NCBI RefSeq assembly: GCF_023897065.1
Contig: NZ_JAMHIV010000057.1
Span: 1-44,680, forward strand
Length of the DNA stretch: 44,680 bases
Source: Crossiella sp. SN42
Lineage (GTDB): Bacteria > Actinomycetota > Actinomycetes > Mycobacteriales > Pseudonocardiaceae
Direction of reading: 5' to 3'
A program made the translations under genes and the position numbers. Under the pieces are notes generated by a model. It did not search any database and was not told where the DNA came from. It saw only the letters and a list, made by a program, of their open reading frames with translations. Every line of letters starts with the position of its first letter. Positions within the stretch are counted from its first letter, which is position 1. Shown piece after piece: positions 205 to 32,248 of this stretch.

Positions 205-1130
205 GCGGCGGCCTCGGGCTCGCGTTCGGTGAGGGGGTGGCCGGTGAGGGTGAGGAAGGCGTCGTCCAGGGTGGCGCGGTCCAGGCGGAGGTCGATCGGG
301 ATGACCTGTTGGGCGGCCAGGGCGGCGGTCAAGGTGTGCAACAGGTTGCCGTGGCCGGTGACGATGACCTCCGGGCCTTCCTGGCGTACCGCGTGCACCT
401 CCGGCAGGGTGGTCAGCGGGTGTGGGTCCAGTGGCGCGGAGGGGCGGAATCGCACGGTCTGCTCATTGTCCACTGTGGACATGAGTCCGGCTGGGGTGTC
501 GATCGCGGCGACCCGGCCTGCGGCCAGCACCGCGATCCGGTCGCAGAGCCGTTCCGCCTCGGCCATGAAGTGGGTGACCAGCAGCACCGTGACGCCCCGG
601 TCCCGGATGCCCTCGATCAGCGCCCAGGTGTCCTTGCGCGCCTGGGGGTCCAGGCCGGTGGTGAGCTCGTCCAGGATGGCGATCTCCGGGTTGCCGATCA
701 GGGCCAGTGCGATGGACAGGCGTTGCTGCTGGCCGCCGGAGAGCTTCTCGAAGCGGGTGTTCGCCTGTTTGGTCAGGCCGAGTTCGGCGAGTAACTGCTG
801 CCAGGGCAGGGGATTGGGGTAGAAGGTGGCGTAGAGCTGGAGCGCCTCGCGGACGGTGATCCGGTCAGGCAGGCGGCACTGCTGGAGCTGGGCGCCGAGC
901 TTGGCGCGCAGGGCGGGGCCGTCGCGCTGGGGATCCAGGCCCAGTACGGAGATCCGGCCGCGGTCGGGGCGGCGCAGGCCCTCCACGCACTCCACCGTGG
1001 TGGTCTTGCCCGCGCCGTTGCGGCCCACGACGCCGAAGATCTCGCCGCGCTCGACGGTGAAGGATACCTCGGCCACGGCCACGTGGTTCCGGTAGCGCTT
1101 GTGCAGGGAGTCGACCTCGATGACTGGCAT
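201..1130 (-). CDS. ABC transporter ATP-binding protein (DrrA/CcmA type)
   Basis: This is the cytoplasmic ATPase of an ABC-2 type exporter, 309 aa. It carries a Walker A motif GRNGAGKT, a Q-loop region, the signature LSGGQQQR, a Walker B region ILDELTTGLDP and an H-loop in VTHFMAEAE, followed by a C-terminal extension of about 90 residues typical of drug or antibiotic exporter ATPases. The start chosen is the ATG at 1130 (MPVIEV), because the longer frame upstream is poor in family-like residues. The next gene on this strand begins within its stop codon. The transported substrate cannot be told from sequence. A copy of the 13-bp palindrome discussed in the findings lies inside it at 468-480, encoding Ser-Thr-Val-Asp. 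Confidence 0.9.
   Translation of the reverse strand: MPVIEVDSLHKRYRNHVAVAEVSFTVERGEIFGVVGRNGAGKTTTVECVEGLRRPDRGRISVLGLDPQRDGPALRAKLGAQLQQCRLPDRITVREALQLYATFYPNPLPWQQLLAELGLTKQANTRFEKLSGGQQQRLSIALALIGNPEIAILDELTTGLDPQARKDTWALIEGIRDRGVTVLLVTHFMAEAERLCDRIAVLAAGRVAAIDTPAGLMSTVDNEQTVRFRPSAPLDPHPLTTLPEVHAVRQEGPEVIVTGHGNLLHTLTAALAAQQVIPIDLRLDRATLDDAFLTLTGHPLTEREPEAAA
468..480. repeat. Palindrome GTCCACTGTGGAC (intragenic copy 1)
   Basis: Exact copy of the recurring 13-bp palindrome GTCCAC-W-GTGGAC inside the ABC ATPase gene. On the coding strand it reads TCC ACA GTG GAC, with the rare Thr codon ACA. Confidence 0.6.
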
Positions 1131-1250
1131 GGGATGAGCTTGTCCTGTGCCAGTGCGGCACGACATCACTCGGATCGGTGGACCGGGAGGGCGGCTGGTT
1201 GACCGGGAATCAGCTGATCGGTTGATGCGCCAGGCCGTACAGTCGGTGGG

Positions 1251-2690
1251 GTGGGGGCGAGACTGGCGATCATCGGCGCGGGTCCGGCGGGACTGGCCAC
1301 GGCACGGGCGGCGCGCGCGGCCGGGCTGGAGCCGGTGCTGTTCGAGCGGAAGACCGAGCTGGGCGGGGTGTGGCGGCCGGGCGACGGCGCGGCCTGGGCC
1401 GGTATGACGACCAACCTGTCGCACCAGCTGTGCTCGTTCTCCGAGCAGGCCTGGCCGGAGCGGACCCGGGACTACCCGTTCCAGGGCGAGGTGCACGGGT
1501 ACCTGTCCGCCTACGCGAGTGGGCTGAGCCCGCGTTATGGCTGTGCGGTCAGCGAGGTCGCGCCCTCGGGTGACGGGTGGGCGGTGACCTGGACCGAGGC
1601 GGGGCGGGAGCATCGCGAGGTCTTCGCCGCGGCGGTGCTCGCCTCCGGGGTGTTCTCCCGGCCCTGGATGCCCGAGCTGCCGGGGAGTTTTGCCGGGGAG
1701 TCACTGCACAGCAGCCAGTACCGCGGCGCGGAACGGTTCGCCGGGAAGCGGGTCGCGGTGGTGGGGATGTCCTTCAGCGGCACCGAGATCGCGGCCGAGC
1801 TGGCCGGGGCGGGGGTGGCGACCACGGCGGTGACCGGCAGGCCGTTCTGGATCCTGCCGCGCTACGAGGGCGGTGTGCCACGCGACCTGCGGGGCATGAC
1901 CCGCCGGCGTCAGCAGGAGCGGACCCGGTTGCCGAGGGCGGCGGCCAACCGGGCGGCGAACACCCGTTACGACGCCCTCGGCGGCAACCCGGGCCGGTTC
2001 GACTCCCGGCTCGCCCTGGACCCGTCCTCGACCGAGCCGCCGCACCTGGTCACCTCCGACCGGCTGCCCGGCCTGCTCGCCGGCGGCGCGCTGCGGATCG
2101 CGGTCGGCCACGTGACCGCCTTGTCGCCCAAGGGGTTGGTGCTCGCCGATGGGTCCGCTGTGGACTGTGACGCGGTGGTCTGGTGTACCGGGTACCGGCC
2201 CGAGCTGCCGCTGCCCGCGCCGCTACTGGCGGAGATCTCCTTCGCCGACGACTGTTTGCAGCCGATCCTGTTGCACGGCTGCACCTTCCACCCCGCGCTG
2301 CCGGGACTGGCCTTCGTCGGCGTGTACCGTGGGCCGTTCTTCGCGGTGATCGAGCTCCAGGCCCGCTGGGCGGTCGAGGTGCTCGCCGGGGCGATGCCGC
2401 CGCCCGCGCCGGAGGTGATGCGGGCCGGAATCCAGTCAGAGCTGGACATCCGGCTGGCCCGGCCGCGGCCGCAGTTCCCGCACGGCGACTACGTGGGTTT
2501 CGCCGATCGGCTGGCCGCCGAGTTCGGCGTGCTGCCCTCGCTGGATCCGGCGGGGGAGTGGTACGAGCAGCTCTGGCACGGGCCGGTGGTCGCCGGGCAC
2601 TACCGGCTGCGCGGGCCTGGCGCGAACCCGGAGCTGGCCGCGCGGCAGTTACGATCGGCGTGGGAACGGGTCGGGAGGAGGCCGGGGTGA
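1251..2690 (+). CDS. Flavin-containing monooxygenase-like NAD(P)/FAD oxidoreductase
   Basis: A 479-aa class B flavoprotein monooxygenase-like enzyme. The N-terminal FAD-binding Rossmann motif is GAGPAG (residues 9-14). An FMO/BVMO-type fingerprint FAGESLHSSQY is followed by a second Rossmann motif, GMSFSG, for NADPH. Such enzymes oxygenate N or S atoms or carry out Baeyer-Villiger oxidation; the substrate here is unknown. Translation begins at a GTG with no Shine-Dalgarno sequence. The hexamer TACAGT ends 7 nt upstream, so the mRNA may be leaderless. The stop codon overlaps the GTG of the next gene by 4 nt, so the two are probably co-translated. Confidence 0.85.
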   Translation: MGARLAIIGAGPAGLATARAARAAGLEPVLFERKTELGGVWRPGDGAAWAGMTTNLSHQLCSFSEQAWPERTRDYPFQGEVHGYLSAYASGLSPRYGCAVSEVAPSGDGWAVTWTEAGREHREVFAAAVLASGVFSRPWMPELPGSFAGESLHSSQYRGAERFAGKRVAVVGMSFSGTEIAAELAGAGVATTAVTGRPFWILPRYEGGVPRDLRGMTRRRQQERTRLPRAAANRAANTRYDALGGNPGRFDSRLALDPSSTEPPHLVTSDRLPGLLAGGALRIAVGHVTALSPKGLVLADGSAVDCDAVVWCTGYRPELPLPAPLLAEISFADDCLQPILLHGCTFHPALPGLAFVGVYRGPFFAVIELQARWAVEVLAGAMPPPAPEVMRAGIQSELDIRLARPRPQFPHGDYVGFADRLAAEFGVLPSLDPAGEWYEQLWHGPVVAGHYRLRGPGANPELAARQLRSAWERVGRRPG

Positions 2691-3103
2691 ACGTCAGCGC
2701 GCAGCAGCTGTTCGCCACGCTGCCCGGCGAATGGCGGTTCAGCCGGGTGATCACCGGGCAGGGCACCGCGAGCGGCCTCGCCCGGTTCCGGCCCGCCGGG
2801 CCAGGGGAGCTGCACTACCGCGAGGACGGCACGCTCACCCTGGACACCGGCTACACCGGGCCCGCCTACCGCGAGTACCGCTACCGGCTCGACGGCGAGG
2901 CGCTCCAGGTGTGCTTCCCGGACGGCCGGATCATGCACACCCTGCGCCCGGACGCCGAGGCGGCCACCCACCTGTGCGGCGCGGACGTCTATACCGGCCA
3001 CTACCGGCTGGCCGACCCGGACACCTTCCACATCTCCTACGAGGTGGCCGGGCCGCACAAGGACTTCACCATCGCCACCGTGTTCCGGCGGGTCACCGGC
3101 TGA
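2687..3103 (+). CDS. DUF6314-like small protein
   Basis: A 138-aa soluble protein whose GTG start overlaps the monooxygenase stop (GTGA, 2687-2690). It has no signal peptide or membrane helix. It has alternating short strands and repeated aromatic/Gly turns (ELHYREDGTL, YTGPAYREYRYRL, YTGHYRLADP), suggesting a small beta-barrel. This pattern resembles the DUF6314 family, from memory and not confirmed by a search. The coupling suggests a role with the monooxygenase, perhaps binding its substrate or product. Its end overlaps the convergent AAA+ gene by 11 bp. Confidence 0.7.
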   Translation: MNVSAQQLFATLPGEWRFSRVITGQGTASGLARFRPAGPGELHYREDGTLTLDTGYTGPAYREYRYRLDGEALQVCFPDGRIMHTLRPDAEAATHLCGADVYTGHYRLADPDTFHISYEVAGPHKDFTIATVFRRVTG

Positions 3104-4343
3104 GCCTGCGCCGGACCTCCTTGGCCGCCAGGTACTCGGCCACGTCGGAGTAGCGCTCGGACTGGTTGGCGAACTCCACGTACGCCTTGGCCCGCACCAG
3201 CCAGTCCACAGTGGACGGACGAACCTGGGCGAGGGCCTGTTCCAGGTGCGCCATCCGCAGTGGCGGCTCCGCGCCGGTGCGCAGCGCCTCGTCGATCACC
3301 GCGTCGATCGCGCGCTCGGTGACCGCGCGCAGGTCCGCGCCGCTGAACAACGCGGTCGGCTCGGCCAGCCTGCCGGGGTCCACGCCCTCGGTGGGCGCGG
3401 CGGCCAGCAGCACGCGCAGGATCTCCGCGCGGGCCGGGGCATCCGGCGGCGGCACGAACACCACCCGGTCGAACCGGCCGGGCCGCAGCATCGCCTCGTC
3501 CACGTCCCACGGCGCGTTGGTGGCGGCCAGCACCAGCACCCCGTCGTTGTCCGAGCCGATCGCGTCCAGCTCCTGCAACAGCACGTCCACCAGGCGGCGG
3601 GCGTCGGAGCCGTGGTGCTTGTGCCGGGCGAAGGCCAGCGCGTCCAGCTCGTCCAGGAACAGCACGCAGGGCGCCTGGGCGCGGGCGTTCTCGAAGGCGG
3701 CGTGCAGGTTCTGCTCGGACACCCCGAGGTAGGGGTCCATCACGTCCTCGATCCGGACGTTGACGAACGGCAGCCCGCACTCCCCGGCGGTGGCGCGGGC
3801 CATCATGGTCTTGCCGCAGCCGGGCGGCCCGTACAGCAGCACGCCGCCACCGGTGCGGCGGCCGTACTTGGCGTAGAGCTCCGGCCGGGACAGCGGCAGG
3901 ATGATCATGCGGTGGATCAGCTGCTTGACCTCGGTCATGCCGCCGATCTGGTCGAAGGTCAGCGTTTCCGCCCGCGCGGGCGGACCCTCCGGCCGCTCGC
4001 CGGAGCGACCCTCGGCGGTGACCCTGATCGCGCCGCGCGCGGTGAGCAGCTCGTCGACCAGCCGCTGGAGCTTGCCGACACCCTCCACGATCCCGGCCTG
4101 TCTGGCGTGTTCCAGGCAGGCGCGCAGCAGCGGCAGCCGCTGCTCGGCCGCGGCCAACTCGCCGATGTGCACCAGCGACTCGGTGAGGTCGGCGTCGTGG
4201 TGCAGCAGCCAGTCGTACTCATCCAGCGCCGCCGCGGTCTGACCGGCGCCGGCCAGCTCCTCGGCCAGCATCAGTCGCAGCATGGGGTCATCCGGGCTGG
4301 CCGCGACCGCGCGGCGCAGCGACTCGATCCGGTGCTCGCTCAT
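3093..4343 (-). CDS. AAA+ ATPase with N-terminal TPR-like region
   Basis: A 416-aa cytoplasmic AAA+ protein of the Cdc48/FtsH-like classic clade. Residues 1-100 look like helical TPR-type repeats. The AAA module begins near residue 127 (LTFDQIGGM). It shows Walker A GPPGCGKT (172-179), Walker B VLFLDELDAL, sensor 1 LAATNAPWDVD and the arginine-finger region MLRPGRFDR, so it should be an active ATPase. Its ATG overlaps the stop of the TPR gene by ATGA. It is the last gene of a three-gene, fully overlapping operon (5640 to 3093). The target protein is unknown. It contains palindrome copy 3204-3216. Confidence 0.88.
   Translation of the reverse strand: MSEHRIESLRRAVAASPDDPMLRLMLAEELAGAGQTAAALDEYDWLLHHDADLTESLVHIGELAAAEQRLPLLRACLEHARQAGIVEGVGKLQRLVDELLTARGAIRVTAEGRSGERPEGPPARAETLTFDQIGGMTEVKQLIHRMIILPLSRPELYAKYGRRTGGGVLLYGPPGCGKTMMARATAGECGLPFVNVRIEDVMDPYLGVSEQNLHAAFENARAQAPCVLFLDELDALAFARHKHHGSDARRLVDVLLQELDAIGSDNDGVLVLAATNAPWDVDEAMLRPGRFDRVVFVPPPDAPARAEILRVLLAAAPTEGVDPGRLAEPTALFSGADLRAVTERAIDAVIDEALRTGAEPPLRMAHLEQALAQVRPSTVDWLVRAKAYVEFANQSERYSDVAEYLAAKEVRRRLSR
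3204..3216. repeat. Palindrome GTCCACAGTGGAC (intragenic copy 2)
   Basis: Exact copy of the 13-bp palindrome inside the AAA+ gene. On the coding strand it gives Ser-Thr-Val-Asp with the rare Thr codon ACT. Confidence 0.6.
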
Positions 4344-5200
4344 CGGTTTCGCTCCAGCCAGCGGCGCACCAGCGGCGGCGCCACCCACGAGTAGACGCAG
4401 TACAGGACCCAGATCACGGTCAGCCCCAGGGCCAGCGGCAGCAACCCGGCCGCGCGCAGGCCCAGCAGCACCAGCATGAAGCCCAGCCACAGCTTCATCG
4501 GCCCGATCCGGTACATCAGCCGCAGCGGCCGCAGCGCCGGGTGCGCGGCCACCCTGGCCTCGCGGGCGGCCGCGACGTAGGCGGCGTTGCCGGGTTCGGC
4601 GGCCGCGGCCGCCCGGAACGACCGGTACGCCTGGTCGACGTCCCCGGTCTGGGCCGCGGCGTTGCCGTGCATGGCCCGCGCCGCGGTGGAGTCCGGGTCC
4701 TGCGCCAGGGTGTCCGCGCTGTGCCGCACCGCCTCGGCGTCCTGGCCGCGGGCCAGCGCGATCATCGACCGGACCTGGCCGACCGACTCCAGGTGCGGAT
4801 CGTGGTGTGCGGCCCGGGCGACCAGCCGCTCCGCCTTGTCCACCTGCCCGGCGGACAGGCACAGCCGCGCGTAGTCGCAGAGCAGCTGCGGCTGTTCCGG
4901 GTCCTGGTGCAGCGCGGCCAGCAGCGCCTCCTCGGCCGCCGGCCACTGGCCCAGCTCGTGCCGGGTGTTGCCGAGCACCTGCAGCAGCGGCAGGTCCGGC
5001 CCGAACCGGCTGATGCCGTCCGCGGCGACCTGGGCCGCCTCCTCGTTGCGGTCCAGCATCCACAGCGCGCTGGCCCGGAACACCGTGGCCGGGTAGCCGA
5101 CCGCGTCCTCCCCGGGCAGCTGGGCCAGCGCGTCGAGCGCGCGCTCGGGCTGGCGCACCGACATCCAGTGCCGCACCAGCGCGAAGGTCTCCTCGCTCAT
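4340..5200 (-). CDS. Tetratricopeptide repeat protein with C-terminal membrane segments
   Basis: A 286-aa protein. Residues 1-220 form a series of helical TPR-like units (for example PDLPLLQVLGNTRHELGQWP and PEQPQLLCDYARLCLSAGQ). The C-terminal 65 residues contain two hydrophobic stretches (WLGFMLVLLGLRAAGLLPLA and VIWVLYCVYSWVA) that should anchor it to the membrane with the repeats in the cytoplasm. Both ends overlap their neighbours by ATGA (5197-5200 and 4340-4343). It probably acts as a scaffold that brings the downstream AAA+ ATPase to the membrane (inference). Confidence 0.8.
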   Translation of the reverse strand: MSEETFALVRHWMSVRQPERALDALAQLPGEDAVGYPATVFRASALWMLDRNEEAAQVAADGISRFGPDLPLLQVLGNTRHELGQWPAAEEALLAALHQDPEQPQLLCDYARLCLSAGQVDKAERLVARAAHHDPHLESVGQVRSMIALARGQDAEAVRHSADTLAQDPDSTAARAMHGNAAAQTGDVDQAYRSFRAAAAAEPGNAAYVAAAREARVAAHPALRPLRLMYRIGPMKLWLGFMLVLLGLRAAGLLPLALGLTVIWVLYCVYSWVAPPLVRRWLERNR

Positions 5201-5640
5201 GCCGTCCACACCACCACGGCCACCAGCAGCGCCTCCGGGATGCCGCAGCCGAACAGCGCGCCGAAACCGGGTCCCCACAGCGAGGCGTGCTCGCCGCCGC
5301 GCAGCTGGAACACCCGTTCCGCGGTGTGCTGCAAGCGGGCCTGGGCGAAGTAGCCGAGCAGCGCCACCGCGCGGATGATCAGCCGCAGCGCGTTGATCGC
5401 CACCAGGTCCGCGATCAGGTGCGCGAGCACGAGCTCCGCGGCCAGCGCCACCCCGCCGATCAGCAGCACCAGCCGCCGCTCGCGGGCGGCCATGCCCAGC
5501 TTGCCGGAGTTGAGAAAGGCGATGGTGGTGACCGCCAGCACGCCGCCGAAGAACGCGACATAGGCCTGGCTGCTCACCCGCCACGGCCGTGCGGTCCCGG
5601 CTGACGTGCGAATCGTCGGCCGGAGAAGATCGTCGGACAC
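5197..5640 (-). CDS. Small integral membrane protein
   Basis: A 147-aa protein with about four hydrophobic helices (YVAFFGGVLAVTTIAFLN, LVLLIGGVALAAELVLAHLI, INALRLIIRAVALLGYF and a C-terminal GIPEALLVAVVVW). It opens a translationally coupled operon with the TPR and AAA+ genes. The GTG at 5640 gives the longest product; an internal start is possible. I do not recognise a family. Confidence 0.7.
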   Translation of the reverse strand: MSDDLLRPTIRTSAGTARPWRVSSQAYVAFFGGVLAVTTIAFLNSGKLGMAARERRLVLLIGGVALAAELVLAHLIADLVAINALRLIIRAVALLGYFAQARLQHTAERVFQLRGGEHASLWGPGFGALFGCGIPEALLVAVVVWTA

Positions 5641-5693
5641 CCTGCCCCCTCCAGTTCCGCCGAAAGCGTAGTCGACGGCTCTACCCTGTTCCG

Positions 5694-6158
5694 GTGACGC
5701 GGCGAAGTGCGGGCATCCTGGTCCACCGCAGGGGCGAGAACGGGGTGGAAGTCCTGCTCGGACACATGGGCGGCCCGTTCTGGGCGAGCAAGGACGAGGC
5801 GGCCTGGTCCATCCCCAAGGGCGAGCACACCGAGGACGAGGCGCCGGAGGCCGCGGCCCGGCGGGAGTTCCTGGAGGAGCTCGGGCTGCCCGCGCCGGAG
5901 GGGGAGCTGCTGCCGCTGGGACAGGCGCGGCAGTCGGCGAAGGTGGTCGCGGTGTGGGCGGTGGAGGGGTCGGTGGACCTGGAGCGGGTGGTGCCGGGGA
6001 CCTTCCGGATGGAGTGGCCGCCGCGGTCGGGGAAGTTCGCGGAGTTCCCGGAGCTGGACCGGGTGGCGTGGTTCGACCTGGAGACCGCGGCGGTGAAGCT
6101 GGTCAAGGGACAGCGGGTGTTCCTGGCGCGGTTGGCCGAGCTGCTGGCTCAGAGCTGA
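5694..6158 (+). CDS. NUDIX hydrolase
   Basis: A 154-aa Nudix hydrolase that cleaves a nucleoside diphosphate linked to another moiety. The Nudix box GX5EX7REUXEEXGU is complete, running from GEHTED through REFLEELGL, so it should be catalytically competent. The N-terminal segment AGILVHRRG and the insertion PFWASKDEAAWSIPKGE match the diadenosine-polyphosphate/MutT-like branch with a YffH/Ndx-style fold. Substrate specificity is not certain. The GTG at 5694 is preferred over an in-frame ATG far upstream, because TACCCT lies 6 nt before it and suggests a leaderless start. Confidence 0.9.
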   Translation: MTRRSAGILVHRRGENGVEVLLGHMGGPFWASKDEAAWSIPKGEHTEDEAPEAAARREFLEELGLPAPEGELLPLGQARQSAKVVAVWAVEGSVDLERVVPGTFRMEWPPRSGKFAEFPELDRVAWFDLETAAVKLVKGQRVFLARLAELLAQS

Positions 6159-6182
6159 TCAGCGGGTGCCCGCAGGCCCTGC

Positions 6183-6581
6183 TCAGTGCGTGCGCCAGAA
6201 GACGACCATGATCACGATCTGGAGGGTGAGGACGCCCACGATGATCGACCACTGCCTGCCGAAGCTCCAGCGCCGCGCGACCGCCAGCAGCACCAGCACC
6301 ACACCGGCGACAGCGGCGACGACGCAGCCCACTGTCCACCACACGTCCCCAGAGCTGCCGCCGATGAAACCGACGATGACCGAGAACAGCACCGCTCCGA
6401 CGATCATCCAGTCGCGGAGGAAGCCCTCGGCCAGCGCCACCACCGCTCTGGGCAGAAAACCGGCCCACGCGCGGCGGCGCTGGGTCGATCCCTCAGCCTT
6501 GTCCACCGCATCGGCGTGCTCGTAGGCCGAACGAAACAGCGGACCGTCCTCATCGGTCGGACCGGGCCGGTCGGCAACCAT
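6183..6581 (-). CDS. Small three-helix membrane protein
   Basis: A 132-aa protein with an acidic, hydrophilic N-terminus of about 45 residues and three hydrophobic segments (MIVGAVLFSVIVGFIGG, VGCVVAAVAGVVLVLLAVA, SIIVGVLTLQIVIMVVFW). The family is not recognised. The ATG at 6581 is chosen because TAGGGT lies exactly 7 nt upstream, matching other likely leaderless genes here. A GTG at 6590 would add three residues. It converges on the Nudix gene with 24 bp between the stop codons. Confidence 0.65.
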   Translation of the reverse strand: MVADRPGPTDEDGPLFRSAYEHADAVDKAEGSTQRRRAWAGFLPRAVVALAEGFLRDWMIVGAVLFSVIVGFIGGSSGDVWWTVGCVVAAVAGVVLVLLAVARRWSFGRQWSIIVGVLTLQIVIMVVFWRTH

Positions 6582-6720
6582 GGCGTTCACCCTAGACCCA
6601 GCGTCGCCGCTGGGCTGAACGGCAGCTTGCTGTCACGAGTTGGCCAAAACCGGGAGGGCTCCCCAGGCTGGTGCCGACAATCAGTGACGGCAACAGCCCG
6701 ATCCGCGACGGAGGAGCCCG

Positions 6721-9206: not shown

Positions 9207-9220
9207 GGGGCCATTCTGGA

Positions 9221-12199
9221 TCACCGCCCCGCCGGGCCGAGATGGAACACCGCAAACTCGTCCAAAGACAGCTCTTCCGCGACGCCACCGATCGCCCGGC
9301 GCAGCCCGACCCAGCTGTCCCCGGAGCTGGACGCGGTGAACTCCACCGTGTGCGTGCCGGGCTCGGCGCGGGCCGGCAGCGGGGTCACCGTGACGTCCCT
9401 CGGCTTGCCGTCGGCTGGATCCTCGCCGACCACCCAGCTGTAGGCGCCGCCCGCGGCCGCGTACGTGAAGCTCACCCGGTAGCGGTGGCCCGGCTCGAAG
9501 CGGACCGTGGCCGGGGTGGTCCGGTAGACCAGGTGCGCGACGTACTCGAAGGACTTCAGGCTCCAGTCGCCCTCAATCACGTCGTCCACTGCCTTGCCGT
9601 TCCAGCCGCGCTGAGTGAACGGGGCGTGCTTCTCGGCCAGGTGGGTGCGGGCGTCGGTGGGCGCGATCTCGCCGCCGGGCACGAACGGGCCCCAGCCCTG
9701 GTCGACCCGCTCGAAGTCCCAGCGGCTGCCGGGATCGGGAGCCGGGGTGACCCGCAGGTCGTCGATCCGGACCGCCGCGTCACCCTCGCCGACCCGGACG
9801 CCGACCTCGGTGCCGCCGGTGCTGGTGAAGAACACCCGGATCCGCTGTGACTTGGTGCCCTTCTTCTCCTCGGAGGCCACGATGTTGGTCACCGTGGAGC
9901 GGTCCAGCCGGGTTTCCTTGCCGTCAGCGAACACGGTGACCGGCCTGGACTTGCCGGGCTCGACCTCCACCATCAGCGAGGCCGCGTACTCACCCGGCGG
10001 CAGCTGCACCCGCTGGCTCAGGCTGGCCGATCCGCCGCGCACCACGGCCTCCCGCTGCCCGCGGTCGTTGGCCTCCACCGCGACCGCGCCGTTGTGCCGC
10101 CAGCCGGTGAGGTCGCCGGAGTCGAAGCCGGGGTTCGTGGTCGGCGTGCCCTCGCCGTAGCCGGCCTTCGGCGCGGGCGCGGGGGCCTGCGCGGTGACCA
10201 GGTACGGGGTGCGCGCGTCGGCGGTGATGGTCACCTTTCCGTCGCGCACCGGCAGCGCGCCGACGTGCGCACGGCCGTCGTCGGTGAGCCGGTAGAGCTG
10301 GAGGCTGGGCCACTTGGCCAGTGCCGGCGGCAGTGCCCAGGTGCTGGTGCCACCGGCGGGATTCCAGTGGTAGGCCTTGTCCGGCGCGGCAGGCGACCAG
10401 GGCAGCAGATAGGCGCCGTTGTCATAGATCAGCCTGCCGTCCTGGTGGAACTGGCGTTTGCCGCCGGGCGCGGTCACCTTGAGCCCGCCGTCCAGCACAG
10501 CCTCCACAGTGGACAGTCGCTGCACCGGGAAGTGCTGGAGGTACTTGGTGGGCAGGTTCTGCTCGAAGGTGTTGGCCAGGAACGCCCGGTAGTCGGTCTC
10601 GCCGGTCCAGCCCTCGAACTCCACGATCCGCGCGCCCATCAGCAGCGGGTGGTGCACGAAGACGTCCTTCTGGTGGTTGCGGGCCAGCCGGATGATGGTG
10701 GAGTTGATGCCGCGGTGGGTCTCACTGCTGTAGTCGATGTCGGTGGCCCAGTGCGTCCACAGCGTCTCCCGCTCCAGCCGGTGCGACCACTCGGTGGCCA
10801 TCTCCCAGCCCAGCTGCCGCACCTCGCGCTGTAACCGGTCCGCGGTCCAGCCCGTCTCCCGGAACACGTCGAAGTACAGGAAGTCCAAGCCGCCCTTGGT
10901 CTCCCGCTGGAGCTGGGCCAGCCTGCGCTGGAGGTCGCCGGAGGCCAGGTCGCGGCGCTGGTTGATCCGGTAGGACTGGTCCATCCAGGCCCACTGCTTG
11001 TTGCTCTTGTCCACCAGCGTCTCGGAGAAGGCCTTCGCCTCCGGGTAGGACTCGGTCGCGTTGACGTGCACGCCGAAGTCGGCGTTCCAGCGCTTTCCCT
11101 TTTCCAGCAAGGTGTTCAGCCCGCGCAGGCCGCCAGCTCGCTCGTTGTAGTGGCCGCCGTAGTCCGGGTGCGCGGCGTCGTGGCCCTCCGACTGGTAGCC
11201 CTTGAGCAGCACGAACTGGCCGAGGCCGTCGGTGGCCAGGTTGACCCGCTTGGTGTCGTCCAGGGTGCGGGTGAACGGGTGCGTGGCCGAGGAGGCGATG
11301 TTGAACGGGATCCGCTGCACCACCCGGTCCTTGGTCCGCTGCCAGCCCTTCGGCTGCCACATGATGTCCCGGAAGGCGATCGCCGCGTCCTGCCAGTCCA
11401 GCACGCCGTCGCCGTTGCGCTCCCCGGTCAGCGTGACCTTGGCCCAGGGCGCGGGCTCGGTGTCCGGCGCGTCCTTGGCCCGGTGCGTCCACCGTCCACT
11501 CCAGACACTCACCGCGGGGCCGTCCGCGGTGGCCCTGGCCTGCCGCCAGATCCGGCCGTTCTCATCCGCGCCCGGACCGCCGTCCTGGTCGTAGGTGGAG
11601 TTGGTCTCGATCGCGGCGGCCAGCTTGCCGGTGCTGACCATGCCATAAGCCGAGCCCTGCGGCTGCGCGTCCGGCGCGGTGGCGGCGTTGACCGGGTAGA
11701 TCCGGTCGCCGTTGCCGTTCTTGTTCAGCTCCACCCTGGCCGCGGCCACCTGCGCGGCCGGATCGGCGGCACGCACGGTGAGCAGGTCGTGGCCGGGGAT
11801 GTCGATGGTGCCCACCCGGAAGGCCGGGGTGTCGCGCACCTGGTCGATCCGGAAGGTCACGGTGCGCCCGCGCAGCGCCAGGCTGGTCTCCAGGCGCACG
11901 CCGGGCAGGTCGGGGAAGGTCAGCGCGTACCGCACCGCGCCACCGGCCGGGCGGGCGGCGGCGCTGGTCCGGTACTCGGTTCCGTTGAGCCGCAGCGAGG
12001 TCAGCGGCGCGGACCGGCCGTGCAGCACCGCGCCGGAGCGGCGGTCGGTGTAGCTGACCACCCGGGGGAACTCCGCGCCGATGGCCACGCTCAGCTCGGC
12101 CGAGCGCAGGGTCAGCTCGGGTTGGGCAACAGCCGGTAGCGCGGGGGCGAGCAGGGTCAGGGCGGCGGCTAACACCACGGGGGACAGGCGGGTCGACAC
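9221..12199 (-). CDS. Secreted GH101 endo-alpha-N-acetylgalactosaminidase-like enzyme
   Basis: A 992-aa secreted glycosidase. GTG 12199 is preceded by a strong Shine-Dalgarno sequence (GGAGGTG), which decides this start over GTGs at 12205 and 12211. A Sec signal peptide (cleavage near AVA-QPE, residue 25) leads into a beta-sandwich, then the GH101 (beta/alpha)8 barrel. Candidate catalytic residues are Asp444 (LDFLYFDVF) as nucleophile and Glu470 (ATEWSH) as acid/base. C-terminal sandwich/CBM-like modules run from about residue 690. GH101 enzymes release the core-1 disaccharide Gal-beta-1,3-GalNAc from Ser/Thr O-glycans, so the likely target is mucin-type glycoprotein; specificity is not proven here. 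Palindrome-like copy at 10503-10514. Confidence 0.88.
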   Translation of the reverse strand: MSTRLSPVVLAAALTLLAPALPAVAQPELTLRSAELSVAIGAEFPRVVSYTDRRSGAVLHGRSAPLTSLRLNGTEYRTSAAARPAGGAVRYALTFPDLPGVRLETSLALRGRTVTFRIDQVRDTPAFRVGTIDIPGHDLLTVRAADPAAQVAAARVELNKNGNGDRIYPVNAATAPDAQPQGSAYGMVSTGKLAAAIETNSTYDQDGGPGADENGRIWRQARATADGPAVSVWSGRWTHRAKDAPDTEPAPWAKVTLTGERNGDGVLDWQDAAIAFRDIMWQPKGWQRTKDRVVQRIPFNIASSATHPFTRTLDDTKRVNLATDGLGQFVLLKGYQSEGHDAAHPDYGGHYNERAGGLRGLNTLLEKGKRWNADFGVHVNATESYPEAKAFSETLVDKSNKQWAWMDQSYRINQRRDLASGDLQRRLAQLQRETKGGLDFLYFDVFRETGWTADRLQREVRQLGWEMATEWSHRLERETLWTHWATDIDYSSETHRGINSTIIRLARNHQKDVFVHHPLLMGARIVEFEGWTGETDYRAFLANTFEQNLPTKYLQHFPVQRLSTVEAVLDGGLKVTAPGGKRQFHQDGRLIYDNGAYLLPWSPAAPDKAYHWNPAGGTSTWALPPALAKWPSLQLYRLTDDGRAHVGALPVRDGKVTITADARTPYLVTAQAPAPAPKAGYGEGTPTTNPGFDSGDLTGWRHNGAVAVEANDRGQREAVVRGGSASLSQRVQLPPGEYAASLMVEVEPGKSRPVTVFADGKETRLDRSTVTNIVASEEKKGTKSQRIRVFFTSTGGTEVGVRVGEGDAAVRIDDLRVTPAPDPGSRWDFERVDQGWGPFVPGGEIAPTDARTHLAEKHAPFTQRGWNGKAVDDVIEGDWSLKSFEYVAHLVYRTTPATVRFEPGHRYRVSFTYAAAGGAYSWVVGEDPADGKPRDVTVTPLPARAEPGTHTVEFTASSSGDSWVGLRRAIGGVAEELSLDEFAVFHLGPAGR

Positions 12200-12233
12200 G
12201 GGCACCTCCACGATCGACTGCGCGAATGTGCTT

Positions 12234-24322: not shown

Positions 24323-26864
<2,542 letters not shown>

Positions 26865-26878
26865 AGGAGACCAGCCCG

Positions 26879-28021
26879 ATGTACGACGTGATCGTGATCG
26901 GCCTCGGCGGCATGGGCAGCGCCGCCGCCAGCCACCTGGCCGCCCGCGGCAGCCGGGTGCTCGGCCTGGACCGCTTCGGACCCGCCCACCACAACGGATC
27001 CAGCCACGGCGGCTCCCGGATCATCCGCCAGTCCTACTTCGAGGACCCGGCCTACGTGCCGCTGCTGCTGCGCTCCTACGAGCTCTTCGACCGGCTCACC
27101 GCCGACTCCGGCCGCGACGTGCTCACCGTCACCGGCGGCGTGATGATCGGCCGCCCGGACAGCCTCACCGTCAAGGGCAGCCGGCTGTCGGCGGAAACCT
27201 GGGACCTGCCGCACGAGATGCTGGACGCGCTGGAGATCCGCCGCCGCTTCCCGACCATGACCCCGGTCGAGGACGAGATCGCGCTCTACGAAACGAAAGC
27301 CGGGTTCGTCCGCCCGGAAGCCACCGTCACCGCCCACCTCGAACTGGCCGGCAAGGCCGGTGCGCACCTGCGCTACCACGAACCCGTGCTGGACTGGACC
27401 AGCGACGGCAACGGCGTCCGCGTGCGCACCGGAGCGGGGGAGTACCGCGCGGAGAAACTGGTGATCTGCCCAGGAGCCTGGGCACCCGAGCTGCTCGCCG
27501 ACCTCGGCATCCCGTTCGTGATCGAACGCCAGGTGCAGTACTGGTTCGCCCCCACCGGCGGCACCGGCCCCTTCCAGCCCGAGGTGCACCCCATCTACAT
27601 CTGGGAGGCCGCCGACGGCGTGCAGGCCTACGGCTTCCCCGCCAGCGACGGCCCGGAGGACGGGGCCAAGGTCGCCTTCTTCCGCGGCGGCCAGACCTGC
27701 ACCCCCGACACCATCGACCGCACCGTGCACCCGCACGAGGTCGAGGCCATGCGCGCGCAGATGTTGCCGCGCATCCCCAGCCTGCCCGGCAGGTTCCTGC
27801 GCGCGGCCACCTGCATGTACACCAACACCGCCGACGAGCACTTCGTGATCGCCACCCACCCCGCGCACGAGCGGGTCACCGTGGCCTGCGGGTTCTCCGG
27901 GCACGGCTTCAAGTTCGTGCCCGTGGTGGGCGAGATCCTCGCCGACCTCGCGCTCACCGGCGCCACCGCGCACCCCATCGACCTGTTCCGCCCCGAACGG
28001 CTCTCCGAGGTGACCCCGTGA
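26879..28021 (+). CDS. solA: Monomeric sarcosine oxidase (MSOX family)
   Basis: A 380-aa flavoenzyme that converts sarcosine to glycine, formaldehyde and H2O2. The FAD motif [17 protein letters not shown] is followed by the family signature [13 protein letters not shown]. Cys312 in [11 protein letters not shown] is the expected site of covalent FAD attachment. N-methyl-tryptophan oxidase is a close relative, but the locus argues for sarcosine. A good ribosome site (GAAGGAG) precedes the ATG 14 bp after the previous stop. The stop overlaps the oxygenase GTG (GTGA). Confidence 0.9.
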
Positions 28022-29175
28022 CCGCAACCGGTCTGCCCCCGAGCCTGCTGGCCACCCTGCCCGGCAGCGCCTACACCGACCCCGAGGTCTTCACCGCCGA
28101 GCAGCAGCACCTGTTCGAGGCCATGTGGTTCTGCGCCGTGCGGCTGTCCGATCTGGACGGTCCGGGAGCCTACCGCACCGTCCAGATCGGACGGGAGAGC
28201 GTCATCCTCACCCGCAACCGCGCCGGACAGCCGCGCGCCTTTCTCAACATCTGCCGCCACCGCGGCGCGCGGATCTGTACCCAGGACAGCGGTGCGGTCA
28301 AACGCAACTTCCAATGTTCCTATCACGCCTGGACCTACGACCTGGACGGCAAGCTCATCGCCGCGCCCAACCTGACCAAGATGCCCGACCTGGACCGCGT
28401 CGAGTACGGCCTGGTCACCGCGCACGTCAAGGAATGGCTGGGCTACCTCTGGGTCTGCCTCGCACCGGAACCGCCGTCCTTCGCCGACACCGTGCAGCAG
28501 GTGGTCACCGAACGCCTCGGTTCCCTGGCAGCCATCGACTCCTACACCATCGGCCAGTTGACGGTGGGCCGCCGCATCGTCTACGACGTGCGCGCCAACT
28601 GGAAGCTGATCGTGGAGAACTTCATGGAGTGCTACCACTGCGCCACGATCCACCCCGAGCTCACCGAGGTGCTGCCCGAGTTCGCCGACGGCTACGCCGC
28701 CCAGTACTACGTCGGCCACGGGGCCGAGTTCGGACCGGATATCCAGGGCTTCACCGTCGACGGCAGCCCCGGCTTCGAACCCCTGCCCGGCCTGCGCGAG
28801 GACCAGGACCGGCGCTACTACGCGATCACCGTGAAACCGCAGGTCTTCATCAACCTGGTGCCCGACCACATCATCTTCCACCGCATGTTCCCGCTGGCCC
28901 CCGACCGCACCGTGGTGGAGTGCGACTGGCTCTACACCAACGAGGTGGTGGCCACGGGCAAGGACGTCTCCCGCTCGGTCGAGCTGTTCCACCGGGTGAA
29001 CGAGCAGGATTTCCAGGCCTGCGAGCGGACACAACCTGCCATGTCCTCCCGCGCCTACCGAGATGGTGGTGTACTCGTACCCAGCGAACATCACATCGGT
29101 GCGTTTCACCAGTGGGTTCAGGAGGCAACGGGCAGGTTCGTGCCCACTTCGGGGTGCGCGAAACCGGAAGATTGA
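28018..29175 (+). CDS. gbcA: Rieske oxygenase, glycine betaine monooxygenase large subunit (GbcA-like)
   Basis: A 385-aa Rieske non-haem iron oxygenase. The [2Fe-2S] ligands are Cys79/His81 and Cys100/His103. Catalytic iron ligands are His207, His212 and probably Asp331. Glu204 takes the place of the usual bridging Asp, a feature known from the quaternary-amine oxygenases CntA and GbcA. It demethylates glycine betaine to dimethylglycine with release of formaldehyde. Carnitine monooxygenase is an alternative, but flanking dimethylglycine, sarcosine and choline genes favour betaine. No GbcB-type fused reductase is adjacent; electrons probably come from the pair at 21821-23280. Confidence 0.9.
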
Positions 29176-29209
29176 ATTAGATAGCGGCCAGACATACCTA
29201 GGAGGTTGT

Positions 29210-30682
29210 ATGGCCGAGCTGTTCATCGGCGGCAGATGGCTGGCGGCACAGGAGGGCGGCCAGCGGGAGATCCGCTGCCCCGCGGACGGTTCGGTCGTGG
29301 CCACCGTGGCCGAGGCGACCCGCGTGGACACCGAGGCGGCGATCGCGGCCGCGCGCACCGCCTTCGACACCGGCCCCTGGCCGCGCACCCCCGCGGCCGA
29401 ACGCGGGCGGCTGCTGCTCCGGGTGGCCGAACTGTTGCAGCGGGACAAGGTCGCGCTGGCCCGCGCCGAGGCCATGGACACCGGAAAGCGCTTGGTCGAA
29501 GCCGAGTACGACATCGACGACGTGACCGCCTGCTTCCGCTACTACGCCTCGATCGCGGCCACCGACGCCGGCCGGGTGGTCGACACCGGCAACCCGGAGG
29601 CCACCAGCAAGGTGGTCTACGAGCCGGTCGGCGTGTGCGGGCTGATCACCCCGTGGAACTACCCGCTGCTGCAGACCGCGTGGAAGGTCGCCCCGGCGCT
29701 GGCCGCGGGCAACACCTTTGTGCTCAAGCCCAGCGAGCTGACTCCCAGCAGCGCGATCATCCTGATGCGCCTGCTGGTGGAGGCCGGACTGCCGCACGGC
29801 GCGGGCAACCTGGTCCTCGGCGCGGGCCCCGAAGCCGGTGCGCCGCTGTCCGAGCACCCCGACGTCGACCTGGTCTCCTTCACCGGCGGCCTGTCCACCG
29901 GGCAGCGGATCATGACCTCCGCCGCGGGCACGGTGAAGAAGATCGCCCTGGAGCTGGGCGGCAAGAACCCCAACATCGTCTTCGCCGACGCCGACTTCGA
30001 CACCGCGCTGGACTACGCGCTCACCGCGGTCTTCCTGCACTCCGGCCAGGTCTGCTCCGCCGGAGCGCGCCTGATCATCCAGCAGGAGTGGCACGACCGG
30101 TTCGTGGACGCGCTGGTCGAGCGCGCGCAGAAGATCCGCCTCGGCGGGCCCTTCGACGAGCGCGCCGAGACCGGTCCGCTGATCTCGGCCGCGCACCGGG
30201 AGAAGGTCGAGGCCTACGTGGCCGCCGGGATCGCCGAGGGCGCGGTGCTGCGCTGCGGCGGCAAGCGGCCCGAGGACCCCGCGCTGGCCGACGGGTTCTA
30301 CTACCCACCGACCATTTTGGACGGTTGCCGGTCCGGGATGACCGTGCTGCGCGAGGAGTCCTTCGGCCCGGTCCTCACGGTGGAGACCTTCACCGACGAG
30401 GAGGACGCGATCCGGATCGGCAACGACACCGACTACGGCCTGGCCGGCGCGGTGTGGACGGGCGACGCGGGCCGGGCCGAGCGGGTGGCCGGGCGGTTGC
30501 GGCACGGCACCATCTGGATCAACGACTACCACCCGTACCTGCCCCAGGCGGAATGGGGTGGTTTCAAGCGGTCCGGCATCGGCCGTGAGCTAGGCCCGAG
30601 CGGGCTCAACGAGTACCGCGAGGCCAAGCACATCTGGCACAACCTTCGGCCGGCGCCGCAGAAGTGGTTCTCCGGCGAGTGA
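29210..30682 (+). CDS. betB: Betaine aldehyde dehydrogenase
   Basis: A 490-aa NAD(P)-dependent aldehyde dehydrogenase. Catalytic Cys282 is in SGQVCSAGARL and general base Glu248 in LELGGKNPN, 34 residues apart as usual in the family. The motif TPWNYPLLQ binds cofactor. It should oxidise betaine aldehyde to glycine betaine. It begins after a strong AGGAGGT ribosome site in a 34-bp gap. Because choline oxidase can do both steps itself, this enzyme may remove escaping aldehyde or act on another amino-aldehyde. Confidence 0.88.
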   Translation: MAELFIGGRWLAAQEGGQREIRCPADGSVVATVAEATRVDTEAAIAAARTAFDTGPWPRTPAAERGRLLLRVAELLQRDKVALARAEAMDTGKRLVEAEYDIDDVTACFRYYASIAATDAGRVVDTGNPEATSKVVYEPVGVCGLITPWNYPLLQTAWKVAPALAAGNTFVLKPSELTPSSAIILMRLLVEAGLPHGAGNLVLGAGPEAGAPLSEHPDVDLVSFTGGLSTGQRIMTSAAGTVKKIALELGGKNPNIVFADADFDTALDYALTAVFLHSGQVCSAGARLIIQQEWHDRFVDALVERAQKIRLGGPFDERAETGPLISAAHREKVEAYVAAGIAEGAVLRCGGKRPEDPALADGFYYPPTILDGCRSGMTVLREESFGPVLTVETFTDEEDAIRIGNDTDYGLAGAVWTGDAGRAERVAGRLRHGTIWINDYHPYLPQAEWGGFKRSGIGRELGPSGLNEYREAKHIWHNLRPAPQKWFSGE

Positions 30683-30718
30683 CCCTGCCCTTGCACCCCA
30701 CCACGCTCGGAGGTTGCC

Positions 30719-32248
30719 ATGACGACCGTCCGCTCGGACGACGCTGAGCTCCAGGAGTTCGGCTACCGCCAGGAACTGAAGAGGACCCTCGGAAACTTCC
30801 ACACCTTCGCCGCCGGGATCAGCTACATCTCCATCCTCACCGGCACTTTCCAACTGTTCTACCTCGGCTTCGCCCAGGGCGGCCCGGCCTACTGGTGGTC
30901 CTGGCCGATGGTCTTCGCCGGCCAGCTCATGGTCGCGCTCTGCTTCGCCGAGCTCGCCGCCCGCTACCCGATCGCGGGCTCGATCTACAACTGGGCCAAA
31001 CGGCTCAGCAACCCGCACGTGTCCTGGCTGGCCGGCTGGCTGATGCTGGCCGCCTCCGCCACCACGGTCGCCGCGACCGCGCTGGCGCTGCAGATCACGC
31101 TGCCGCAGATCTGGGACGGCTTCCAGCTGGTGCCGGACAACCCGACCAACGCGGTGATCCTGGCCAGCATCCTGATCGTGTTCACCACCGTGATCAACGC
31201 CTGCGGGGTCAAGCTGATGGCCCGGATCAACAGCGCGGGCGTGCTGATCGAGCTGATCGCGGCGGTGATCATGGTGGTGGTGCTGGCCGCCTTCGCCGTG
31301 CGCGGACCCTCGGTGGTGCTGGAGACCCACGGCACCGGCGAGGGCAACCCGCTCGGCTACATGGGCGCGTTCCTGGCCGCCTCGCTGGCCTCGCTGTACG
31401 TGATGTACGGCTTCGACACCGCGGCCTCCCTCGGCGAGGAGTCCAAGGACCCCTGCCGCAACGCGCCCAAGTCCATCCTGCGCGCGGTGACCGCCTCCTT
31501 CGTCATCGGCGGCCTGCTGCTGCTGTTCGCGCTGATGGCGGTGCGCGACATCAACGCGCCGGAACTGGGCACGATCGGCCTGCAGTACATCGTGCTGGAC
31601 GTGCTCGGCCCGGTGGTCGGCAAGATCTTCCTGGTATCCGTGGCCATCGCGATCGTGGTGTGCGTGCTCGCGGTGCACACCGCGGCGATCCGGATGATGT
31701 TCGCCATGGCCAGGGACAACAACCTGCCCGGCGGCGCGAAGCTGGCCAAGGTCAGCGCCCGGTTCCAGACCCCGGTGCTGCCCGCGCTGCTCATCGGCGC
31801 CTTCGGCATCGCCTTCCTGATGATCAACATCGGTCAGCCGCAGATCTTCTCGGTGGTCACCAGCATCGCGATCATCCTGATCTACCTGGCCTACCTGCTC
31901 GTCACCGTGCCGCTGCTGATCGCCAGGTTCCGCGGTCGCTGGCCACTGTCCACAGTGGAGGGTGCGGAGTCCCGATTCGGGCTCGGCAAGTGGGGTCTGC
32001 CGGTCAACATCGTGGCCGTGCTGTGGGGCGCGGCCATGGTGGTCAACCTGCTGTGGCCACGGCAGGCGATCTACAACCCGAGCCCGCCGTTCCACTGGTA
32101 CCTGCAGTGGGGCGCGGTCCTGTTCGTGGGCGCCGTCACGATCATCGGCTTCGCGTACTACTGGTTCGTCCAGCGCCACCGCAGCGGTGTGCTGGCCGAC
32201 CACGCGCACACGCCTGCCGAGGCGGCCCCGATGCCGGAGGTGCGTTGA
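30719..32248 (+). CDS. APC-family permease, probable choline/amine importer
   Basis: A 509-aa transporter with about 12 membrane helices. The N-terminal segment FGYRQELKRTLGNFHTFAAG, then ISYISILTGTFQLFYLGF, is typical of the amino acid/choline transporter (ACT) branch of the APC superfamily, which includes yeast choline permease. It is placed between betaine aldehyde dehydrogenase and choline oxidase, so choline or betaine import is the best guess. ATG 30719 follows GGAGG. The stop shares one base with the choline oxidase ATG (TGATG). A near-copy of the 13-bp palindrome lies at 31948-31960. Confidence 0.85.
   Translation: MTTVRSDDAELQEFGYRQELKRTLGNFHTFAAGISYISILTGTFQLFYLGFAQGGPAYWWSWPMVFAGQLMVALCFAELAARYPIAGSIYNWAKRLSNPHVSWLAGWLMLAASATTVAATALALQITLPQIWDGFQLVPDNPTNAVILASILIVFTTVINACGVKLMARINSAGVLIELIAAVIMVVVLAAFAVRGPSVVLETHGTGEGNPLGYMGAFLAASLASLYVMYGFDTAASLGEESKDPCRNAPKSILRAVTASFVIGGLLLLFALMAVRDINAPELGTIGLQYIVLDVLGPVVGKIFLVSVAIAIVVCVLAVHTAAIRMMFAMARDNNLPGGAKLAKVSARFQTPVLPALLIGAFGIAFLMINIGQPQIFSVVTSIAIILIYLAYLLVTVPLLIARFRGRWPLSTVEGAESRFGLGKWGLPVNIVAVLWGAAMVVNLLWPRQAIYNPSPPFHWYLQWGAVLFVGAVTIIGFAYYWFVQRHRSGVLADHAHTPAEAAPMPEVR

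What the first reader, a model, noticed from the sequence alone, without database searches (positions are those of the whole stretch)
468..31960. Over-represented intragenic palindrome GTCCAC-W-GTGGAC
Exact 13-bp copies occur at 468-480, 3204-3216 and 25376-25388, and copies with one change at 2153-2165, 10502-10514, 26708-26720 and 31948-31960. All lie inside unrelated genes on both strands. The reading frame is the same each time (Ser/Tyr-Thr/Ala-Val-Asp/Glu), and six of seven use ACA or ACT for Thr, codons rarely seen in these genes. My rough base-composition estimate expects far fewer than one exact copy here. The pattern recalls highly iterated palindromes such as HIP1 and may be a site for a chromosome-binding protein, repair enzyme or methylase.
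Basis: partly seen in the sequence, partly recalled or inferred. Interest (0 to 1): 0.72.

Follow-up and report, generated by a model that had tools for sequence, protein, structure and literature searches.

The report
Genome-wide palindrome written into genes
An actinobacterium carries hundreds of copies of one 13-letter DNA palindrome, mostly inside genes and apparently held there by selection even where that changes the protein, which points to an unidentified DNA-binding system that uses the whole chromosome as its landmark map.

Summary
GTCCAC-W-GTGGAC occurs 473 times in the 9.72-Mb genome (reversed control 0). An 840-kb sample has 35 copies against 0.017 expected. A synonymous-codon shuffle leaves a mean of 0.42 (34 observed in genes). 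The genus is Crossiella, Pseudonocardiaceae. Copy number is a lineage trait: 330-500 in the genus, up to 640 elsewhere in the family, zero in all 18 sampled members of another genus. Outside the order, a phylum sample showed 0-2.

STVD, the tetrapeptide it encodes, is 12 times over-represented. Three proteins aligned to homologues show no insertion at the site; in two the residues differ. Between two species the synonymous centre stayed A or T at 20 of 20 in-frame sites (about 0.51 expected), and arms changed less than flanks. Whole-word identity was not above control.

Best reading: selected binding site of an unidentified dimeric, chromosome-wide protein; HIP-like but not HIP1. An extra ParB paralog common to carriers, promoter operators and inserted repeats are disfavoured. 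Methylation- or repair-driven origin and biased DNA transfer remain open.

The parts
468..480 (.). exact copy GTCCACTGTGGAC inside an ABC-transporter ATPase gene (201-1130, -), peptide MSTVDN
   Evidence: no aligned congener stretch in what was fetched
2153..2165 (.). one-mismatch copy inside an FMO-like monooxygenase gene (1251-2690, +), peptide GSAVDC
   Evidence: no aligned congener stretch
3204..3216 (.). exact copy GTCCACAGTGGAC inside an AAA ATPase gene (3093-4343, -), peptide PSTVDW
   Evidence: no aligned congener stretch
10502..10514 (.). one-mismatch copy inside a GH101 gene (9221-12211, -), peptide LSTVEA; identical in G002, 6 mismatches in G003, not aligned in G001
25376..25388 (.). 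exact copy inside a dimethylglycine oxidase-like gene (24429-26864, +), peptide QSTVDE; exact in G001, G002 and G003 (centre A to T in G003)
26708..26720 (.). one-mismatch copy in the same gene, peptide GYTVDR; identical in G001 and G002, 3 mismatches in G003
31948..31960 (.). one-mismatch copy inside an amino-acid permease gene (30719-32248, +), peptide LSTVEG; 3 mismatches in G001 and G002, 7 in G003
32358..32370 (.). two-mismatch copy inside a GMC oxidoreductase gene (32248-33792, +), peptide PSDVDD
40448..40460 (.). two-mismatch copy in another frame (VHIGRT), possibly chance

Best explanation
GTCCAC-W-GTGGAC (weakly extended to ACtGTCCACWGTGGACaGT) is a genome-wide landmark: the binding site of an unidentified two-fold symmetric (dimeric) DNA-binding protein that works on the chromosome as a whole, most likely in its organisation, segregation or coordination with division, and not on individual promoters. 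New sites arise by point substitution where a gene tolerates Ser-Thr-Val-Asp or a near neighbour, and are then held by purifying selection on the DNA. Shown: over-representation, a symmetric unit with nearly fixed spacing, DNA-level constraint including a synonymous centre, substitution without insertion in aligned examples, spread over the whole chromosome, and lineage-wise presence or absence. Inferred: that a protein dimer reads it and that the benefit is chromosomal.
For: 473 copies, reversed control 0. 35 against 0.017 expected in 840 kb; centre C or G: 0. Strongest over-represented word at k = 9, 10 and 12. Synonymous shuffle mean 0.42 against 34. G001 to G002 (93.2% identity): 16 exact sites become 10 exact, 6 one-mismatch, 0 worse. 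Centre stays A or T at 16 of 16 exact and 25 of 25 aligned sites with up to 1 mismatch, 20 of 20 in the STVD frame (7 one-mismatch sites unaligned), against about 0.51 retention at other 4-fold W positions. Arm substitutions 7/300 against 195/2250 in flanks. Spacing N1: 35 of 35 in G000, 19 of 20 in G011, 15 of 16 in G039, for gaps 0-5. CC/GG positions nearly invariant among one-mismatch copies. CDS share equals CDS coverage. 193 positions along G002 have Poisson-like gaps. Same consensus in three other genera, two of them in other families.
Against: No reader protein was found, so binding is not shown. Letter-for-letter, 7 of 16 exact sites are identical in G002 (3 more differ only by A/T at the centre), which is not above the 0.557 of control 13-mers of like composition in any frame; the case rests on centre retention and on arms against flanks. 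Between the more distant G000 and G002, 2 of 7 exact sites were lost and 4 of 11 one-mismatch sites had 3 or more mismatches; against G003, 3 of 3 one-mismatch sites were degraded and the one exact site kept. Density varies more than Poisson in 0.5-Mb bins (p = 0.0016) and no origin-terminus pattern was seen, with oriC not located. A biased repair or transfer process could mimic selection.
Confidence: 0.53

Rival explanations
1. Methylation- or repair-driven HIP: a methyltransferase or mismatch-repair factor recognises the site, and repair bias creates and preserves it as a by-product, as Elhai proposed for HIP1.
For: HIP1 is the closest precedent and its presence generally goes with methyltransferases (PMC4390886: abstract, passages, sections 13 and part 1 of 18). 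Lineage-wise presence and loss. Elhai's text says CGATCG is mostly not over-represented outside HIP1, so a weak inner core here does not exclude this rival. In G000 inner cores not extended further are enriched: CACWGTG 42 against 21.7, CCACWGTGG 14 against 3.0.
Against: CCACWGTGG that is not extended is at background in G011 (1 against 0.8) and G039 (1 against 0.4); CACWGTG is 17 against 8.1 and 3 against 4.6. One-mismatch copies are not concentrated at the ends (17, 10, 2, 1, 12, 17 from the outermost to the innermost arm position), unlike HIP1. Density is about 49 per Mb, against 300-2700 tabulated for HIP1. A 13-bp methylase site would be unusual (recalled). No methyltransferase gene was searched for.
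Confidence: 0.22
2. Biased DNA transfer or gene conversion: fragments carrying the site are preferentially moved or retained, so it accumulates as uptake sequences do.
For: Copies sit in unrelated genes and coincide with changed residues in two aligned proteins; they are dense in megasynthase genes.
Against: Known uptake sequences are not palindromes (recalled). No competence or conjugation machinery was examined. The 15-mer TGTCCACWGTGGACA was found in 87 stretches of the viral collection, which I judge near chance from an assumed collection size; the hosts are unknown, so this says little.
Confidence: 0.12
3. Operators of an ordinary transcription factor (the 19-bp odd palindrome has tetO-like geometry; recalled).
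For: Odd two-fold palindrome with a central W and weak 3-bp extensions. Some copies lie between genes near starts (L190, L191, L193, L195, L200, L201, L205).
Against: 34 of 35 exact copies lie inside predicted genes. A scan of 16 genomes for sites just upstream of an RBS-like word and a start gave 98 matches; in 20 stretches that I chose from them no recurrent target gene between genera was seen.
Confidence: 0.05
4. Nucleoid-occlusion or partition site of an extra ParB-family protein (Noc or KorB type; KorB's 13-bp odd operator recalled).
For: Noc binds specific sequences scattered round the chromosome (PMC4331003, abstract start in the listing). The Crossiella genomes have 3-4 ParB_N matches each.
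Against: Copy-rich G004, G009, G011, G039, G046 and G056 have a single ParB_N match, as does zero-copy G025, while zero-copy G007 has 3. No long depleted arc in G002 when two site subsets are combined.
Confidence: 0.04
5. Inserted repeat, protein motif or compositional artefact.
For: The peptide STVD is repeated (36 times).
Against: Three of three aligned proteins show no gap at the site. 35 of 36 STVD are spelled TCC ACW GTG GAC. The reversed control is 0 and the synonymous shuffle removes the signal.
Confidence: 0.01

Closest known systems
HIP1 (GCGATCGC) of cyanobacteria and alternate HIPs
   Same: Over-represented genome-wide palindrome found inside genes, present or lost by lineage, with many one-off copies and position-specific tolerance.
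   Different: 13-bp odd palindrome with a W centre; about 49 per Mb here instead of 300-2700; deviations not mainly at the ends; methyltransferase link not tested.
Chromosome landmark sites: SlmA sites, Noc sites, MatP matS
   Same: Two-fold palindromes of 12-14 bp scattered along a chromosome and read by a dedicated protein (site sequences recalled).
   Different: Several times more copies than those (recalled), no terminus pattern seen, reader unknown, no extra ParB paralog common to carriers.
DNA uptake sequences (Neisseriaceae, Pasteurellaceae)
   Same: Short exact words over-represented genome-wide (PMC1939737, abstract start in the listing).
   Different: Symmetric motif, much lower density (recalled), no competence evidence.

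Membership tests
Highly iterated palindrome (HIP), general kind | Palindromic word far more frequent than composition and codon usage allow, across the genome | tested here: met
Highly iterated palindrome (HIP), general kind | Not confined to intergenic DNA | tested here: met
   86 of 94 sites with up to 1 mismatch in CDS, coverage 0.888, p = 0.51
HIP1 proper | Sequence GCGATCGC with nested GATC/CGATCG | tested here: not met
   Different sequence, which contains neither
HIP1 proper | 300-2700 copies per Mb | tested here: not met
   473 in 9.72 Mb, about 49 per Mb (HIP1 figure in a passage)
HIP1 proper | One-off copies deviate most at the ends | tested here: not met
   17, 10, 2, 1, 12, 17 from outermost to innermost; HIP1 pattern
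HIP1 proper | Cognate methyltransferase present | not tested
   No search for methyltransferase genes was made
SlmA/Noc-type nucleoid-occlusion sites | Depleted near the terminus | tested here: inconclusive
   No depleted arc among 193 of 237 T- or G-flanked G002 sites, to 7.97 of 10.06 Mb; oriC not located
Noc/KorB (ParB family) | Extra ParB_N protein in carriers | tested here: not met
   Several rich genomes have one match; Crossiella has 3-4; G059 (37 copies) has none
DNA uptake sequence | Non-palindromic, oriented word | tested here: not met
   The word equals its reverse complement but for the A/T centre
REP/BIME or MITE | Extragenic or inserted unit with conserved flanks | tested here: not met
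   Flanks vary beyond about 3 bp; genic; no insertion in three aligned proteins

The most novel reading that the evidence does not exclude
A previously undescribed chromosome-organising system of Pseudonocardiaceae and scattered related families: its own dimeric protein reads up to about 100 landmarks per Mb, and selection for landmarks is strong enough to rewrite protein sequence in hundreds of genes. Whole genera have gained or lost it.
Probability: 0.38. Interest if true: 0.87.

Novelty: new variant of a known kind. Interest (0 to 1): 0.72.

Why it matters
Iterated palindromes such as HIP1 have had no agreed function for decades (recalled). This one is longer, rarer, symmetric about a single base pair and present or absent between sister genera, so presence-absence comparison and affinity capture could name its reader. 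It also shows a DNA-level signal overriding protein sequence: STVD is here a genomic fingerprint, not a protein motif.

Tried and rejected
DnaA-box pairs: considered because GTCCACA recalls the actinobacterial DnaA box (recalled). Rejected because flanking T is not preferred on the strand with centre A (11 of 35, against 17 of 35 A on the other side).

The 19-mer as a special strong site: exact copies occur in 3 of 16 genomes, one each, about what the flank frequencies give by my own estimate.

Promoter operators: 98 matches upstream of an RBS-like word and a start in 16 genomes; 20 stretches chosen and read. Several hits proved to lie within coding sequence, for example in what reads by eye as an acyl-CoA dehydrogenase in three genera.

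Substitute palindromes in zero-copy genomes: in 200 kb each of G025 and G007 nothing comparable. G007's CTTGGG-N3-CCCAAG (8) and GTGAGTGGCGAT (10) repeats are grouped, and 0 and 1 of them lie in CDS; G025's CCCTGGCCAGGG (5 against 0.17 expected, 5 of 5 in CDS) is a weak candidate that I did not follow.

Terminus depletion: a 535-kb gap in the T-flanked subset of G002 holds 9 G-flanked sites, so I dropped it.

Extra ParB paralog common to carriers: not found. Synteny search with L033 failed because the stretch is scrambled in G002. Plasmid searches listed no Crossiella plasmid among the rows shown.

Literature: nine searches. The exact-sequence search found 3 papers that hold the letters once each; their titles and abstract starts are unrelated. 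I saw no description of this motif in the listings; the library holds open-licence PMC papers only.

Full report
What is in the window. All seven reported copies of GTCCAC-W-GTGGAC are at the stated coordinates; two more with two mismatches bring the total to 9, against a mean of 1.78 and a maximum of 5 in 100 dinucleotide shuffles. Each of the seven lies in a predicted gene, in frame xxG TCC ACW GTG GAC or one change from it. The genes are unrelated: ABC ATPase, FMO-like monooxygenase, AAA ATPase, GH101 glycosidase, dimethylglycine oxidase-like (two sites) and amino-acid permease.

Genome scale. The window is contig 53 of a 9,719,922-base assembly (G000) holding 473 exact copies; the reversed pattern has 0. 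I analysed 839,547 bases of it (400 kb of C1, all of C2, 160 kb of C3 and the window). There are 35 exact copies against 0.017 expected from a third-order Markov model and none with centre C or G. Counted on both strands, one-mismatch W-centred words are 118 against 1.17 expected, two-mismatch words 142 against 20.15, and three-mismatch words 228 against 215, so the excess ends there. Words from this motif are the most over-represented of length 9, 10 and 12; at length 6, 7 and 8 others rank higher. My own simple gene caller placed 34 of 35 exact copies in genes, 32 in the STVD frame. Keeping protein and codon usage per gene but permuting synonymous codons leaves a mean of 0.42 (maximum 3 in 60 shuffles); permuting codon order leaves 0.017. 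Composition, codon usage and the protein sequence as it stands do not explain it.

The motif writes protein. STVD occurs 36 times in 678 predicted proteins, against 3.0 in shuffled proteins (maximum 8 in 200); every other order of the four residues occurs at most 8 times. 35 of the 36 are spelled TCC ACW GTG GAC. I aligned three site-bearing proteins to solved homologues; none shows an insertion at the site. In a ketosynthase, STVD stands opposite TASD; in the window's dimethylglycine oxidase-like protein, opposite SEIE; in a GMP-reductase relative the homologue already has STVD. Sites are made by substitution in such cases, sometimes at amino-acid cost, sometimes not.

Anatomy of the unit. 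Profiles show the 13-mer plus weak extension: few G and more T at -1, and more A at -3 (folded, so symmetric by construction; unfolded). One-mismatch copies fall, from the outermost to the innermost arm position, 17, 10, 2, 1, 12 and 17: the CC/GG pairs are nearly invariant. The half-site GTCCAC is enriched only 1.26-1.40 fold in G000, G011 and G039 (0.98-1.12 in two empty genomes). For gaps 0-5 only spacing N1 occurs in G000 (35); G011 has one N3 beside 19, and G039 one N2 beside 15. Inner cores that are not extended further: CCACWGTGG 1 against 0.8 in G011 and 1 against 0.4 in G039, but 14 against 3.0 in G000; CACWGTG 17 against 8.1, 3 against 4.6, and 42 against 21.7. So the full word carries most of the signal, with some inner-core excess, part of which must be one-mismatch copies.

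Conservation. G001 and G002 align over 201,836 bases at 93.2% identity. Of 16 exact sites in G001, 10 are exact and 6 have one mismatch in G002; of 11 in G002, 10 are exact and 1 has one mismatch in G001. At ordinary 4-fold sites ending in A or T only about half keep A or T. At the motif centre 16 of 16 exact sites do (3 with A/T exchange), and 25 of 25 aligned sites with up to 1 mismatch; 7 one-mismatch sites of 32 had no aligned partner. Counting only sites in the STVD frame, where the centre is a third codon position of Thr or a near neighbour, it is 20 of 20. Arms changed at 7 of 300 positions, flanks at 195 of 2250. Against this, whole-word identity is not special: 7 of 16 exact sites are letter-identical, against 0.557 for control W-centred 13-mers with 8 G/C in any frame. 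For G000 against G002 (110,538 bases, 85.1%) conservation is weaker: of 7 exact sites 3 are exact, 2 one mismatch, 1 four mismatches, 1 gapped; of 11 one-mismatch sites, 4 have three or more mismatches. Against G003 the one aligned exact site is kept and 3 of 3 one-mismatch sites are degraded. Window site 25376 is exact in all three congeners, with the centre exchanged in G003, whereas 31948 is degraded in all three. The constraint is real, with turnover.

Where it occurs. G001 is Crossiella sp. S99.2 (100% over 3,019 bases), so the window genus is Crossiella, Pseudonocardiaceae. Of 60 genomes in the relatives search (G000 included), 42 have a copy: 330-500 in the genus and 0-640 elsewhere in the family. 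In the other 15 families of the order: 237 and 23 in f5, 114 and 1 in f9 (one genus), 74 and 37 in f12, 8 in f14, 3 in f7, and 0 in the 16 genomes of the ten others. Of 396 genomes across the phylum, 19 have a copy; all but G000 have 1-2. Of 297 genomes of the family, 249 have at least one. In 11 of 46 genera (156 genomes, chosen by me and typed in), genus explains 95% of the variance of log copies and genome size 50%; within genera copies still rise weakly with size (r = 0.27). Genera g5 (25 genomes, up to 8.9 Mb, 0-2 copies) and g297 (18 genomes, all 0) show that size alone is not the cause. The same consensus is found in G011, G039 and G056; two zero-copy genomes show no comparable dispersed genic palindrome in 200 kb each, apart from a weak CCCTGGCCAGGG in G025.

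Along the chromosome. Two subsets of G002 sites (followed by T or G), listed to 100 rows each of 120 and 117, give 193 positions to 7.97 Mb. Gaps are Poisson-like (CV 1.01), but 0.5-Mb counts vary more than Poisson (p = 0.0016). One dense stretch, picked because it was dense, has 22 sites in 80 kb, nearly all in PKS/NRPS-type genes (read by eye), partly at the same linker of repeated modules. I saw no gradient; oriC was not located and the last 2.1 Mb were not listed in full.

What reads it. A contiguous two-fold site with a free A/T centre implies a dimeric protein (inference). It is not an extra ParB-family protein shared by carriers: G004, G009, G011, G039, G046 and G056 have one ParB_N match, like empty G025, although Crossiella has 3-4 and empty G007 has 3. 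It does not look like promoter control: CDS share equals coverage (86 of 94), and an upstream-site scan gave no recurrent target in the 20 stretches read of 98 matches. I could not lay whole genomes for a presence-absence comparison, and no methyltransferase or repair gene was tested.

Comparison with what is known. HIP1 is the nearest kind. Elhai's paper (abstract and outline, passages, section 13 and part 1 of section 18 read) ties HIPs to methyltransferases and a repair ratchet. Ours shares over-representation, genic location and lineage-wise loss, but differs in length, odd symmetry, density and deviation pattern. Chromosome landmark sites (SlmA, Noc, MatP) resemble it in form (mostly recalled; listing). 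Three papers hold the letters of the motif once, unrelated by title and abstract start; the listings show none that describes it in these taxa.

Verdict. A real, constrained, genome-wide palindrome and a new variant of the HIP kind; most likely the landmark of an unidentified chromosome-wide binding protein (0.53), with methylation- or repair-driven origin the main rival (0.22).

Noticed in passing
G002:C1:3480001-3540000 and 3570001-3590000 (L320-L323): 22 exact sites in 80 kb, nearly all in PKS/NRPS-type genes, several at the same linker of repeated modules: between five and six times the genome density; the region was picked because it was dense.
   Followed up: partly
G710 (genus g16): Only 6 copies against 84-225 in 24 sampled genus mates: a possible recent loss of the system and a useful comparison genome.
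   Followed up: no
G043 and G056 (same genus g41): 1 against 114 copies within one genus outside the window's family.
   Followed up: no
G002 stretches L094-L108: ACCGA-N4-TCGGT palindromes: 24 in 290 kb of G002, 6 in 840 kb of G000, 0-1 in the other six samples; often in small groups, perhaps a repeat family.
   Followed up: partly
G000 sample: GGGAGCGCTCCC occurs 8 times in 840 kb, 7 of them outside predicted CDS; it resembles the CebR operator of Streptomyces (recalled).
   Followed up: partly
G025 sample: CCCTGGCCAGGG occurs 5 times in 200 kb, all in predicted CDS, against 0.17 expected: a weak candidate for another iterated palindrome in a genome without the motif.
   Followed up: no
G007 sample: Grouped repeats that lie mostly outside predicted CDS (CTTGGG-N3-CCCAAG; GTGAGTGGCGAT pairs; a 15-bp tandem TGCCCAGTCCAACGG).
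   Followed up: partly
window 24429-33792: Dimethylglycine oxidase-like, DAO, Rieske oxygenase, aldehyde dehydrogenase, permease and GMC oxidoreductase genes in a row: probably a betaine/choline breakdown cluster.
   Followed up: no
window 9221-12211: A GH101 endo-alpha-N-acetylgalactosaminidase gene, a family associated with mucin-type glycans (association recalled).
   Followed up: no
window 34348-37069: 2.7 kb of lower GC (0.654) with no gene called by my simple caller.
   Followed up: no
L306 (viral contig) 5927-6013: Three copies of TGTCCACWGTGGACA at 36-bp spacing in a viral contig.
   Followed up: no
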